A program made the translations under genes and the position numbers. The notes beneath the pieces were generated by a model that saw only the letters and a program-made list of their open reading frames with translations, ran no database searches and was not told where the DNA came from. DNA of 64,000 bases, taken from an uncultured Paracoccaceae bacterium. Its GTDB lineage: Bacteria > Pseudomonadota > Alphaproteobacteria > Rhodobacterales > Rhodobacteraceae. The stretch spans positions 62,001 to 126,000 of the forward strand of contig CANKYO010000007.1 in NCBI GenBank assembly GCA_947488175.1, in the 5' to 3' direction. This document shows, piece by piece, positions 29,633 through 34,490 of this stretch; the first letter of the stretch is position 1, and every line of letters begins with the position of its first letter.

Positions 29633-29665
29633 AAACTATCCTCTCAATGAGTGGGAGGAACGACT

Positions 29666-31468
29666 TTGCTTGATACGACAACAAACGATCACGTCACCAC
29701 ATTCCTGAACGATTTCGGCGGTGCGCTGGAGGCTGGCGATATCGACGCCGCCACAGCCATGTTCGTGGATGACTGTTACTGGCGCGATCTGGTCAGCTTC
29801 ACCTGGAACATCAAAACCATGGAAGGACCCGATCAGGTCCGCGACATGCTGAACACCCAACTGGCCAGCACCAAACCATCCAACTGGCAAATCGCCGAAG
29901 GTGAAACCGCGACCGAGGATGGGGGCGTCACCACCGCCTGGATCACGTTCGAAACCGGCGTCGCCCGCGGCTATGGCCTGCTGCGCCTGCGCGACGGGAA
30001 AATCTGGACCCTGCTCACCACGATGTCCGAATTGAAAGGGCACGAGGAACCGCTGGGCCACGAACGCCCGCTGGGGGCCAAGCACGGCGCTGGCAAGCAC
30101 CGGCTGACCTGGGCGGAAGAGATCGCAAAAGAACGCGCCGAACTCGGCTACAAAACCCAACCCTACACCGTCATCATCGGCGGCGGGCAGGGCGGCATCG
30201 CCTTGGGTGCCCGGCTGCGGCAACTGGGCGTGCCCACGATCATCGTGGAAAAGAACGACAAACCCGGCGACAGCTGGCGCAAGCGCTACAAATCGCTCTG
30301 CCTGCATGACCCGGTCTGGTACGACCACCTGCCCTACCTGCCCTTCCCGCCCAACTGGCCGGTTTTCGCGCCCAAGGACAAGATCGGCGACTGGCTGGAA
30401 ATGTACACCAAGATCATGGAGCTGAATTACTGGACCCGCTCCACCGTCACCAACGCCAAGTATGACAAGGCGGCAAAGGAATGGACCGTCACCGTGGACC
30501 GGGACGGCGAAACCGTGACGCTGAAACCGAAACAACTGGTCTTTGCCACCGGCATGTCGGGCAAGGCGAACGTGCCGGACTTCCCCGGCATGGACACGTT
30601 CAAGGGTGATCAGCACCATTCCAGCGCTCACCCCGGCCCGGACAAATACAAAGGCAAGAAAGCGGTTGTCATCGGCTCCAACAACTCCGCCCACGACATC
30701 TGCGCGGCGCTCTGGGAAAACGATGTGGACGTGACCATGGTGCAGCGGTCCACCACACATATCGTGCGGTCCGAGCCGCTGATGGAGATCGGGCTGGGCG
30801 ATCTTTACTCCGAACGCGCAGTCGCTGCCGGAGTCACCACACAAAAGGCCGACCTGATCTTTGCGTCCCTTCCGTACGCGATCCTGCACGACTTCCAGAT
30901 CCCCGTGTATGACAAGATCAAGGAGGTCGATGCCGATTTCTACGCCGCCTTGGAAAAGGCCGGGTTCCAGCTGGATTGGGGGGCCGATGGCTCCGGCCTC
31001 TTCATGAAATACCTGCGCCGCGGGTCGGGCTATTACATCGACGTCGGCGCCAGCCAGTTGATCATCGACGGCAAGATCAAACTGAAGGCAGGGCAAGTCA
31101 CCGAAATCGTGCCTGATGGCGTGATCCTCGATGACGGGACCAAGCTTGAGGCCGACCTGATCGTCTACGCCACCGGCTACGGCTCCATGAACGGCTGGGT
31201 CGCTGACATCATCGATCAGGACACGGCAGACAAGGTCGGCAAGGTCTGGGGGCTCGGCTCAGACACGCCCAAGGACCCCGGCCCATGGGAAGGCGAACAG
31301 CGCAACATGTGGAAACCCACCCAGGTCGAAAACCTCTGGTTCCACGGCGGCAACCTGCACCAGTCACGGCACTATTCGCAGTTCCTGTCGCTGCAACTCA
31401 AGGCCCGGATGGAAGGGATCGACACACCCGTCTACGGCCTGCAAGAGGTGCATCACGACGGGCGGTAA
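29666..31468 (+). CDS. Flavin-containing monooxygenase with N-terminal NTF2-like domain
   Basis: A 600-residue fusion. Residues 1-~130 form an NTF2/SnoaL-like cone (TTTNDHVTTFLNDFGGALEA, FVDDCYWRDLVSFTW). The rest is a class B flavin monooxygenase: FAD Rossmann VIIGGGQGGIALGARL near 158, a variant FMO fingerprint FKGDQHHSSAHPG, the NADPH motif AVVIGSNNSAHDICAALW, and VYATGYGS. The substrate is unknown; it is longer than Tmm-type amine monooxygenases. The start is TTG at 29666 with GGGAGGA at 29653-29659; a GTG at 29651 lies within that site and is unlikely. Confidence 0.88.
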   Translation: MLDTTTNDHVTTFLNDFGGALEAGDIDAATAMFVDDCYWRDLVSFTWNIKTMEGPDQVRDMLNTQLASTKPSNWQIAEGETATEDGGVTTAWITFETGVARGYGLLRLRDGKIWTLLTTMSELKGHEEPLGHERPLGAKHGAGKHRLTWAEEIAKERAELGYKTQPYTVIIGGGQGGIALGARLRQLGVPTIIVEKNDKPGDSWRKRYKSLCLHDPVWYDHLPYLPFPPNWPVFAPKDKIGDWLEMYTKIMELNYWTRSTVTNAKYDKAAKEWTVTVDRDGETVTLKPKQLVFATGMSGKANVPDFPGMDTFKGDQHHSSAHPGPDKYKGKKAVVIGSNNSAHDICAALWENDVDVTMVQRSTTHIVRSEPLMEIGLGDLYSERAVAAGVTTQKADLIFASLPYAILHDFQIPVYDKIKEVDADFYAALEKAGFQLDWGADGSGLFMKYLRRGSGYYIDVGASQLIIDGKIKLKAGQVTEIVPDGVILDDGTKLEADLIVYATGYGSMNGWVADIIDQDTADKVGKVWGLGSDTPKDPGPWEGEQRNMWKPTQVENLWFHGGNLHQSRHYSQFLSLQLKARMEGIDTPVYGLQEVHHDGR

Positions 31469-31522: not shown

Positions 31523-32077
31523 TCACGGGATCAGAATACCACTGCGTTGAAACGTCGCCACATCCGTGGTCCCGTCATCGTAATCAATCTCGACCGTGAC
31601 ACTTTGCACGGTTTCAGGCGCGAACGTCACCCAGATCTGAAACCCCGCCGGGTCGGTCAGCGCGGCGGGTTGGGCCGTATCTTCATAACATGGCTCCATC
31701 TCCAGCACCTGATCGGCGGGCGCGCCGTTGACGCCATAGCGGATTTCCCAAAGACCACAGCGCCAGGACAAAAGACTGGTGAAGTACAGCAAGTCCTGCC
31801 CTTCATACAACCGGACCGCGACCCAACTGCCCTTGGTGGCGTCCAGAATGGGCCGGACCTCGGTGGCATTCAGAAACTTGCCGGTTGGTTCCTGCGGCTC
31901 TGGCGCGCGTGTGTCGGTGGCAGGCTCCGGCTGCGGGTCTTCGATTGCCTCTTGAGCGGCCTCCGCCGCAGGTGCGTCAACGACAGGAGCCATGGGCGTT
32001 GCGCGGGCAACAGGGTCCGATCCGCCCGGTGTTCCACCAACCAGCACAATGAAAAAGATGACAACAAGTTCCAGCAT
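31523..32077 (-). CDS. Membrane-anchored protein with Pro/Ala/Glu linker
   Basis: The 184-residue product has an N-terminal transmembrane helix (MLELVVIFFIVLVGGTPGG), then a low-complexity linker rich in Pro, Ala and Glu (residues ~20-65). A compact C-terminal domain follows, with LNATEVRPILDATKGSWVAV, LYFTSLLSWRCGLWEIRYG and a second Cys in EPCYED. The domain presumably lies in the periplasm with a disulphide; no family was recognised. GGAAAGG precedes the ATG. Its upstream region contains the unusual phased repeats at 32175-32239. Confidence 0.65.
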   Translation of the reverse strand: MLELVVIFFIVLVGGTPGGSDPVARATPMAPVVDAPAAEAAQEAIEDPQPEPATDTRAPEPQEPTGKFLNATEVRPILDATKGSWVAVRLYEGQDLLYFTSLLSWRCGLWEIRYGVNGAPADQVLEMEPCYEDTAQPAALTDPAGFQIWVTFAPETVQSVTVEIDYDDGTTDVATFQRSGILIP

Positions 32078-32174
32078 GATATCGCCTTTCCAAATCGGCG
32101 GTCGGGGTCAGCCAACCATATCAAAACGTTAATGGCGTCTTCATACATCCACCGCGCGCTGCCTTAAACCGGCA

Positions 32175-32239
32175 ATTTTGGCAAAAGGGGTCCGACGCAA
32201 GTCCGACGTTTTGCCGACGCGATGCCGACAGGCCAAAAT
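32175..32239. promoter_or_regulatory. Four CCGAC(G/A) direct repeats at exact 11-bp period inside an inverted repeat
   Basis: CCGACG starts at 32192, 32203 and 32214, and CCGACA at 32225, each exactly 11 bases apart. The array is flanked by ATTTTGGC (32175-32182) and its exact complement GCCAAAAT (32232-32239). It lies downstream of the acs terminator and about 115 bases upstream of the gene at 31523-32077. Helical phasing suggests a protein-binding array; the regulator is unknown. Confidence 0.7.
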
Positions 32240-32271
32240 CGCGAAAACCCCTGTATTAACCGGTGATTCGC

Positions 32272-32302
32272 AAAAAAGGCCGCACAAGGGTGTTGCGCGG
32301 CC
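32272..32302 (-). terminator. Intrinsic terminator of acs
   Basis: On the minus strand GGCCGC pairs with GCGGCC around 13 bases and is followed by TTTTTT. It lies 25 bases after the acs stop codon. Confidence 0.8.
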
Positions 32303-32326
32303 CCGAACACAGCACCGAACGTTGCG

Positions 32327-34285
32327 TCAGCCCCGGTTCATCCGGTTCTCGATCAGATCATCGACCACCGACGGATCAGCCAGAGTCGATATATCACCCA
32401 GCGCCCCGTAATCATCCTCTGCGATCTTGCGCAAAATCCGCCGCATGATCTTGCCCGATCGTGTTTTCGGCAGTCCCGGCGCCCACTGGATCAGATCCGG
32501 CTTGGCAATCGGCCCAATCTCGGCCCGGACCCACGTCTCCAACTCCTTGCGCAGTTCTTCCGACGGCTCCTGCCCGGTCATCAGGGTCACATAGGCATAG
32601 ATCCCCTGCCCCTTGACTGGATGCGGATAGCCGACCACAGCCGCCTCAGCGACCTTGGAATGCGCCACCAGCGCGCTTTCCACCTCTGCTGTGCCCATGC
32701 GATGCCCCGAGACGTTGATCACATCGTCCACACGGCCCGTGATCCAGTAATAGCCATCGGCGTCACGTTTGCAGCCGTCACCGGTGAAATAGTAATTCTT
32801 GTAGTCGGCGAAATAGGTCTTTTCGAACCGCTCATGATCACCCCAGACCGTGCGCATCTGGGCGGGCCAGCTATCCTTGATGCACAGCACTCCCTCGGCG
32901 GCCGTGTCGTTAATCTCTTCGCCAGAGGTTGGCTCTAGGATCACAGGCTGCACACCAAAGAACGGTAGCGTGGCCGACCCCGGCTTGGTCGCCGTCGCCC
33001 CCGGCAGCGGGGTCAGCAGATGCCCACCCGTTTCGGTCTGCCACCACGTATCGACGATGGGTACTTTGCCCTTGCCGACGACGTTATTGTACCAGTTCCA
33101 CGCTTCGGGGTTGATCGGCTCACCCACCGTGCCAAGAACTTTCAGATCCGAAAGGTCATATTTTTCAACAAAATCATTACCTTGCCCCATCAGCGCACGA
33201 ATGGCGGTCGGTGCGGTATAGAACTGGTTAACCTTATGCTTTTCGCAAACCTGCCAGAACCGGCCCGCATCGGGATAGGTCGGCACTCCTTCGAACATCA
33301 GCGTCGTGGCCCCGTTCGCCAGCGGACCATAGACGATATAGGAATGCCCCGTGACCCAGCCCACATCAGCCGTACACCAGAAGACATCACCATCATGATA
33401 GTCGAATGTGTACTGGTGGGTCATCGACGCATAGACGATGTAACCCCCGGTGCTATGCACCACACCCTTGGGCATGCCGGTCGAGCCTGACGTATAAAGA
33501 ATGAACAGCGGGTCCTCGGCGTTCATCTCTTCCGGCGGGCAATCGGCGCTGACCTGCTCTTCCATCTCGTGCAGCCAGTAATCGCCTTCGGACCGCCACG
33601 CGATCTGCTGCCCGGTGCGACGGACGCACAGGCATTTGACGTCATGCATCACGTTGATCAGCGCCTGATTGACACTGTCCTTGAGGTTCGTCACCCGCCC
33701 CCCGCGCGGCGCGCCATCGGCGGTGATCACCACCTTGGCGTTGGATCCGCTGATCCGCGCGGCCAGCGCGTCAGCAGAAAAACCCGCAAAAACAATGGAA
33801 TGGATGGCGCCGATCCGGGCGCAGGCCAGCATGGCATAGGCGGCCTCCGGGATCATTGGCATGTATAGGACGACGCGATCACCCTTTTTTACGCCCAGTT
33901 CCTTCAGGCCGTTGGCCATGCGGCAGGTCCTGTCATGCAACATCTTGTAAGTGATATGCTGGGCGTCATCATCGGCGCTGTCGGGTTCCCAAATAATCGC
34001 GGTCTGATCGCCGCGATCCGCGAGATGCCGGTCAATGCAGTTGGCACTGACATTCAGCATGCCATCCTCGAACCATTTGATGTCGATATTGCCCGGGGCG
34101 AAGCTGGTGTTCTTAACCTTGGTAAACGGTTTGATCCAGTCGACGCGCTTGCCATGTTCGGCCCAGAACGCCTCAGGATCATTGATCGAGGCCGCGTACA
34201 TCGCTTCATACTTCGCCTTATCCGCATGGGCGCCAGCGGCCATTTCGGCGGATGGCGGATAGGTTCCGGCTGGTTGATCGGTCAT
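32327..34285 (-). CDS. acs: Acetyl-CoA synthetase (AMP-forming)
   Basis: Acs activates acetate to acetyl-CoA through acetyl-AMP. The 652-residue length equals that of E. coli Acs. Motifs are [20 protein letters not shown], the P-loop [55 protein letters not shown] and [15 protein letters not shown]. The C-terminal [15 protein letters not shown] carries the acetylatable lysine known to control the enzyme. GGGGGAGA upstream fixes the start at 34285 (MTDQPAG). It is monocistronic. Confidence 0.97.
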
Positions 34286-34490
34286 AGCGGTCTCCCCCTC
34301 ATTCATGTCGTTCGGGCCGCGCAAGTGCGTCGGCCTCCTCCATCGCTTATCATGGGCAGATTGCAGCGGAATCCAAGTCGGCTAAAAGTGTCAGGCCAGA
34401 GTTTGTCAATCCTGGCGCGTCAGGGTCGGTGGTCCCGTCAACGAATTGACACCCCTTTCCTTTCGGTTTGCGGCCCGCTTAGATCGCCAG

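What the first reader, a model, noticed from the sequence alone, without database searches (positions are those of the whole stretch)
32175..32239. Four CCGAC(G/A) repeats at exact 11-bp period, framed by an inverted repeat
Repeats start at 32192, 32203, 32214 and 32225, and ATTTTGGC/GCCAAAAT flank the array. The period is one helical turn, so a protein could bind one DNA face cooperatively. It sits between the acs terminator and the start of an uncharacterised membrane-anchored protein gene, where no coding function is seen.
Basis: seen in the sequence. Interest (0 to 1): 0.6.

Follow-up and report, generated by a model that had tools for sequence, protein, structure and literature searches.

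The report
Genome-wide helically phased repeat arrays
The four short repeats are one of at least 80 look-alike arrays spread evenly along this marine bacterium's chromosome. Related genera keep arrays at some of the same places, even inside a tRNA-synthetase gene, but spell them with a different repeat word, which points to a chromosome-wide DNA-binding system not found in the papers searched.

Summary
In detail: CCGAC at 32192/32203/32214/32225, exactly 11 bp apart. It is not a local curiosity. The same genome (probably Yoonia, Rhodobacteraceae) has 81 exact 4x matches (80 elements); the backwards-pattern control gives none. About half, including this one, sit in a conserved ~200-bp frame: CACCGCRCGC..TTAA..[array]..TTAAC..GANTCGC. 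Arrays are intergenic (79/80), about one per 45 kb, more evenly spaced than chance, independent of neighbouring gene direction, and oriented with replication-type GC skew (67/80). About ten sites are shared with a sister species, where flanks are inherited but the core follows each genome's own consensus. Other genera carry the frame with other words (GTGCA; CAGCC with the TTAAC part only). Inside valS, nine genera have an 11-bp array at one position with four different words. A word first seen in valS of one genome (TAACTC) was then found in another intergenic array of that genome. No exact 4x CCGAC array was found outside the family in the sample. The flanking inverted repeat is incidental, no RNA structure was found, and FtsK-gamma is invariant, so this is not KOPS. 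Best reading: docking sites for an unidentified, fast-evolving DNA-binding protein with a chromosome-level role. The binding platform is well supported; the function is inferred.

The parts
32192..32229 (+). phased array: four CCGAC at 32192, 32203, 32214, 32225 with spacers GCAAGT, GTTTTG, GCGATG
   Evidence: the same 38-bp core recurs at many other places in this genome
32187..32191 (+). GGGGT abutting the array
   Evidence: consensus GGGT/GGGGT before the array in most copies
32150..32159 (+). left frame box CACCGCGCGC (about 45 bp before the array)
   Evidence: same position in G023 and in another genus, G350
32164..32167 (+). left frame TTAA (about 30 bp before the array)
   Evidence: near invariant in G000, also in G023 and G350
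32256..32260 (+). right frame TTAAC (about 25 bp after the array)
   Evidence: TTAA in 40 of 49 left-frame elements
32265..32271 (+). right frame GANTCGC (GATTCGC); GANTC is the CcrM methylation target in alphaproteobacteria (own knowledge)
   Evidence: GANTC present in 42/49 G000 elements chosen by the left frame only, 10/10 in G350, 10/13 in G023, against 2.2% of background windows
32124..32146 (+). left outer box (AAACGTTAATGGCGTCTTCATAC; family consensus AAACCTTAACGCCGCGTTCACAC)
   Evidence: left profile matches window 32066-32191 with 59 bits
32313..32325 (+). right outer box CACCGAACGTTGC, one base from the acs stop codon
   Evidence: right profile matches 32231-32347 with 74 bits
32272..32302 (-). 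acs intrinsic terminator (hairpin plus T-run on the minus strand) lying inside the element
   Evidence: sequence, (by eye; the loop is longer than the scan allows); the region is also seen at the acs end in L101-L105
32175..32239 (.). ATTTTGGC...GCCAAAAT inverted repeat: real but incidental
   Evidence: not conserved between copies; no covarying pairs
32327..34324 (-). neighbour: acs (acetyl-CoA synthetase)
   Evidence: Pfam AMP-binding, ACAS_N
31523..32077 (-). neighbour: uncharacterised 184-aa protein with N-terminal hydrophobic stretch
   Evidence: no Pfam or NCBIfam hit

Best explanation
The feature is one copy of a genome-wide family of DNA docking sites. Each site presents four copies of a short word on one face of the helix (11-bp phase) so that an oligomeric or multi-domain DNA-binding protein can bind cooperatively and in a defined direction. 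In about half the copies, this one included, the array is framed by TTAAC on both sides and a GANTC methylation site, which could couple binding to passage of the replication fork or the cell-cycle state. The sites act at chromosome level (replication, segregation or nucleoid organisation) rather than by regulating the neighbouring gene. The binding protein's specificity changes between lineages and the word in all arrays changes with it, while part of the site positions is kept. Shown by sequence: phasing, copy number, frame, orthologous positions, genome-specific core, word replacement inside the frame and at valS, independence from gene direction, link to GC skew. Inferred: that a protein binds, that methylation matters, and the chromosome-level role. 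The protein is not identified.
For: 80 elements in G000, control 0. Only period 11 stands out de novo in 1.59 Mb of 80 named relatives, with different words. The frame is shared between genera: G000, G023, G350, and it encloses a GTGCA array in G262 (L293) and, less completely, in G304 (L311). Cores are genome-specific (ortholog spacer identity 0.50 against 0.62/0.74 within genomes) while flanks are vertical (0.55 against 0.41). Sites shared across genera keep orientation in 16 of 17, including CCGAC against CAGCC, and CCGAC against GTGCA upstream of lpdA. Nine genera carry an array at the same place inside valS with four words, and the valS word of G060 recurs in another intergenic array there. 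Orientation follows GC skew in G000 (67/80, independent of gene direction), G089 (18/20) and G246 (14/17). Spacing is more even than random (p=0.0016). The one contig with repC carries no 4x array. Neighbours have mixed functions.
Against: No binding data and no candidate protein. Skew orientation is weak in G350 (12/20) and G023 (14/20), and the two-arc polarity test is not significant in G089 (p=0.26) or G350 (p=0.06). Many relatives lack CCGAC arrays altogether (32 of 36 of the genus have 0-5), so the system is dispensable or uses words not searched for. The GANTC frame is not present in all flavours (G089 and G246 lack it). Plasmid absence rests on one contig (about 3 arrays expected).
Confidence: 0.5

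Rival explanations
1. A selfish or semi-domesticated dispersed repeat (REP/MITE-like): the ~200-bp element spread by copying, with strand-biased insertion (for example into lagging-strand single-stranded DNA) giving the skew bias, and copying between sites giving the genome-specific core.
For: High copy number, mostly intergenic, coherent ~200-bp unit whose flanks never occur without an array in 464 kb, genome-specific cores, patchy species distribution, skew-biased orientation.
Against: No terminal inverted repeats seen and no palindrome; about half of the arrays lack the frame but have the same core; positions and orientation kept across genera while the word is replaced, which copying alone does not predict; fixed 11-bp phase and fixed four copies with degenerate spacers indicate selection on binding geometry; even spacing.
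Confidence: 0.2
2. Operator arrays of a conventional transcription factor (for example an OmpR/PhoB-type response regulator reading half-sites at one-turn spacing) that controls genes next to each array, here the 184-aa membrane protein gene.
For: 11-bp tandem half-sites are typical of that regulator class (own knowledge). Several frame-less arrays lie 16-31 bp before start codons. The lpdA site is upstream of the gene in three genera.
Against: No correlation with gene orientation (mean 0.06, t=1.1); 20 arrays lie between convergent genes; arrays lie 7-25 bp after stop codons or inside valS; neighbours share no function.
Confidence: 0.18
3. KOPS-type polar sequences that steer the FtsK translocase.
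For: Orientation follows GC skew in three of the five genomes tested; chromosome rather than plasmid.
Against: The FtsK gamma recognition region is invariant in 18 genomes with CCGAC, GTGCA, CAGCC or no arrays, so it cannot read all the words; one site per ~45 kb is too sparse; 38-bp arrays against 8-bp KOPS.
Confidence: 0.04
4. An RNA-level element (leader, terminator or structured 3' UTR).
For: The acs terminator lies inside this copy.
Against: Orientation independent of transcription; consensus fold -1.9 kcal/mol with no compensatory changes; no significant Rfam match.
Confidence: 0.04

Closest known systems
KOPS / SRS / AIMS (polar chromosome sequences; E. coli KOPS in PMC2680272, AIMS in PMC5993296)
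   Same: Many copies, oriented with the replication-type strand skew, apparently chromosomal
   Different: These are 8-bp words; here a 4x phased 38-bp array, about one per 45 kb, with a lineage-specific word, and FtsK gamma invariant
REP / BIME and other extragenic repeat families (PMC2817692)
   Same: Dozens to a hundred intergenic copies, shared positions between relatives, genome-specific sequence
   Different: Not palindromic, no alternating orientation, fixed one-turn phase, word replaced inside a conserved frame, tolerated inside valS
Iteron and centromere arrays such as parC of ParMRC plasmids (11-bp direct repeats bound by ParR; own knowledge)
   Same: Direct repeats one helical turn apart, expected to be bound by an oligomer
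   Different: Dispersed over the chromosome instead of a single locus; only 3-5 copies per site; no par genes alongside in this window
CtrA / GcrA / CcrM cell-cycle control (TTAA half-sites, GANTC)
   Same: TTAAC and GANTC at fixed positions in the frame
   Different: The array words are unrelated to CtrA sites, and the sites are not at promoters

Membership tests
KOPS | read by the FtsK gamma winged helix | tested here: not met
   gamma recognition region identical across genomes with different words or none
KOPS | polar with respect to replication | tested here: inconclusive
   67/80, 18/20, 14/17 in three genomes but 12/20 and 14/20 in two
REP/BIME | short palindrome able to form a stem-loop | tested here: not met
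   no conserved inverted repeat, no covarying pairs
MITE | terminal inverted repeats and target-site duplication | tested here: inconclusive
   no inverted termini seen in the aligned type I elements; no clean empty site compared for a duplication; transposase relation not tested
Tandem response-regulator operator (OmpR/PhoB type) | located upstream of the regulated gene in fixed orientation | tested here: not met
   no relation to gene direction, 20 of 80 between convergent genes
Tandem response-regulator operator (OmpR/PhoB type) | direct repeats at one-turn spacing | tested here: met
Iteron / parC centromere | array at one locus next to rep or par genes | tested here: not met
   80 dispersed sites beside unrelated genes
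CcrM/CtrA cell-cycle site | GANTC and TTAA at fixed position, above background | tested here: met
   42/49 against 2.2%, for framed elements only
CcrM/CtrA cell-cycle site | methylated by CcrM and bound by CtrA or GcrA in vivo | not testable with these tools
   needs methylome and ChIP
Structured RNA families | Rfam match | tested here: not met
   only sub-threshold chance hits beside the array

The most novel reading that the evidence does not exclude
Rhodobacteraceae carry a previously undescribed chromosome-maintenance system: a DNA-binding protein with fast-evolving specificity reads helically phased arrays at some 50-100 conserved, roughly evenly spaced and replication-polar sites, with a GANTC mark, and the whole set of arrays changes its word in concert when the protein's specificity changes (a bacterial analogue of centromere or PRDM9-type cis-trans turnover).
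Probability: 0.4. Interest if true: 0.93.

Novelty: categorically new. Interest (0 to 1): 0.84.

Why it matters
Concerted turnover of a DNA-binding specificity across dozens of conserved chromosomal sites is, to my knowledge, not described for bacteria, and nine full-text searches turned up no paper on such arrays. If confirmed, it would reveal a new layer of chromosome organisation in an abundant marine family, and the word replacements (CCGAC, GTGCA, CAGCC, TAACTC) give ready-made comparisons for finding the protein and for studying how a global regulator can change its recognition code without losing its sites.

Tried and rejected
Chance: rejected. Inverted repeat as frame: rejected. RNA element: rejected. 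Local regulation of acs or the 184-aa gene: weakened, since other copies lie beside unrelated genes in all orientations. FtsK/KOPS: rejected by invariant FtsK gamma. Simple two-replichore polarity in two genomes with long contigs: not significant; in contig C5 the orientation flips together with local skew blocks, consistent with inversions. My first skew test in other genomes used poor gene calls and gave no signal; it was replaced by raw skew and retrained calls. A search for frames with other cores in the 80 acs loci found only CCGAC copies. Plasmid database: no match to the framed element. Viral contigs: most of the 80 retrieved hits are plain tandem repeats. Literature: no description found.

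Full report
OBSERVATION. In the window such pairs are far above chance.

GENOME-WIDE FAMILY. The window lies in a 4.74-Mb draft genome, G000. The 3x pattern occurs 177 times and the 4x pattern 81 times (80 elements); the same patterns read backwards occur 0 times. In 464 kb, CCGAC-to-CCGAC distances peak at 11, 22 and 33. The acs gene is 87-94% identical to those of Yoonia/Loktanella species and unnamed relatives, so the genus is most likely Yoonia.

ANATOMY. About half of the copies (type I), this one included, share a frame: outer box, CACCGCRCGC, TTAA, GGGGT, array, TTAAC, GANTCGC, then a second outer box (CACCGAACGTTGC) that in this copy ends one base from the acs stop codon. Left and right flank profiles searched independently in 464 kb hit only at arrays (one weak left hit, E=0.19, aside), so the unit is coherent. 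The other copies (type II) have the same core but a shorter context. GANTC occurs in 42 of 49 elements chosen by the left frame only, against 2.2% of background windows, with N varying.

DISTRIBUTION ON THE CHROMOSOME. 79 of 80 arrays are outside called genes, about one per 45 kb, more evenly spaced than random (CV 0.69 against 0.93, p=0.0016). Orientation is unrelated to neighbouring gene direction but follows GC skew: 67/80 in G000 (regression t about -10 after correction for gene direction), 18/20 in G089, 14/17 in the CAGCC genome G246; weak in G350 (12/20) and G023 (14/20). Orientation flips with locally flipped skew blocks in contig C5. The only repC gene is on contig C10, which has no 4x array. 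Neighbouring genes have mixed housekeeping functions.

RELATIVES. In the genus, 4 of 36 genomes have 42-81 4x matches and the rest 0-5. In the family, 31 of 395 good genomes have 4x CCGAC arrays, several with 30-66 matches and different spacers; none of about 284 sampled genomes of other families in the class has one. One genome (G246) instead has 33 matches to CAGCC arrays at the same phase, and 18 of 395 have GTGCA arrays (each palindromic GTGCAC array can count on both strands). A de novo scan of 1.59 Mb around acs from 80 named Rhodobacteraceae records finds nine exact 4x word arrays at period 11 and 0-1 at other periods, with the words GTCGG/CCGAC, TGCAT, GTGCA and CAGAC.

SAME PLACES, DIFFERENT WORD. 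The array after acs is present in L101, L102, L103 and L105, and in degenerate form in L113 and L115. About ten of twenty G023 sites are orthologous to G000 sites. There the flanks are inherited (identity 0.55 against 0.41 between copies) but the spacers follow each genome's own consensus (0.50 between orthologs, 0.62 and 0.74 within genomes). Across genera, shared sites keep array orientation in 16 of 17 pairs, including CCGAC against CAGCC (L049/L284) and CCGAC against GTGCA upstream of lpdA (L083/L291/L305). Two GTGCA arrays (L293, and L311 in part) sit in the type I frame. Four CAGCC arrays have TTAAC on both sides, without GANTC.

valS. One G000 array lies inside the valyl-tRNA synthetase gene, in frame, in the loop between KLWNACRFAEMN and NKWI. 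At the same place 9 of 29 genomes, each from a different genus, carry an 11-bp array: CCGAC (G000), GTCCGAC (G118), ACCGAC (G194, G408), GTGCA (G319; a degenerate one in G352), TGTGCAT (G087, G262), AACTC (G060). The three sister species with many arrays (G014, G023, G026) gave no array there in these scans, so this site is patchy. G060 had no CCGAC or GTGCA arrays; its valS word predicted TAACTC arrays elsewhere, and a 400-kb sample contained one more intergenic TAACTC 3x array, with AACTC pair distances 11 (6), 22 (5) and 33 (2) against at most 1 at others.

MECHANISM. Fixed phase, fixed copy number, conserved positions and a replaceable word argue for a sequence-specific protein that binds several in-phase half-sites (inferred). 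Independence from genes, even spacing and skew-linked orientation argue for a chromosome-level role (inferred, probability about 0.5). TTAAC and GANTC in the frame suggest cell-cycle coupling (inferred). The reader protein is unknown.

LIMITS. The literature check covers only the open library and found no description.

Noticed in passing
L062 / G000:C5:56445 (L337); L339, L360, L362, L363, L340, L338, L347: Phased arrays sit inside the valS coding sequence at one loop in nine genera, with four different words; the loop is a quick read-out of each genome's word.
   Followed up: yes
L261-L284 (G246): 33 matches to CAGCC x4 arrays at 11-bp phase; a third word, partly with the TTAAC frame but without GANTC.
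   Followed up: partly
L179:2243: Tropicimonas has a CAGAC/AGACC array at 11-bp phase, possibly a further word.
   Followed up: no
G089 and G423 (same genus g55): Two members of one genus use CCGAC with different preceding bases and spacers (GCCCGAC with ACTTGC spacers against ATACCGAC), so the core shifts within a genus.
   Followed up: no
L401, L433, L461, L445, L398 (viral contigs): A few viral contigs carry non-tandem CCGAC arrays like those of Rhodobacteraceae; phage or prophage use of the sites is possible.
   Followed up: no
G000:C10:37288-37803 (L336): The only repC of the genome is on contig C10 (a RepABC plasmid), which has no 4x array.
   Followed up: partly
29651-31468: A 605-aa protein with SnoaL-like and flavin monooxygenase-like domains in the window.
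   Followed up: no
31523-32077: 184-aa membrane-anchored protein without Pfam or NCBIfam match.
   Followed up: no
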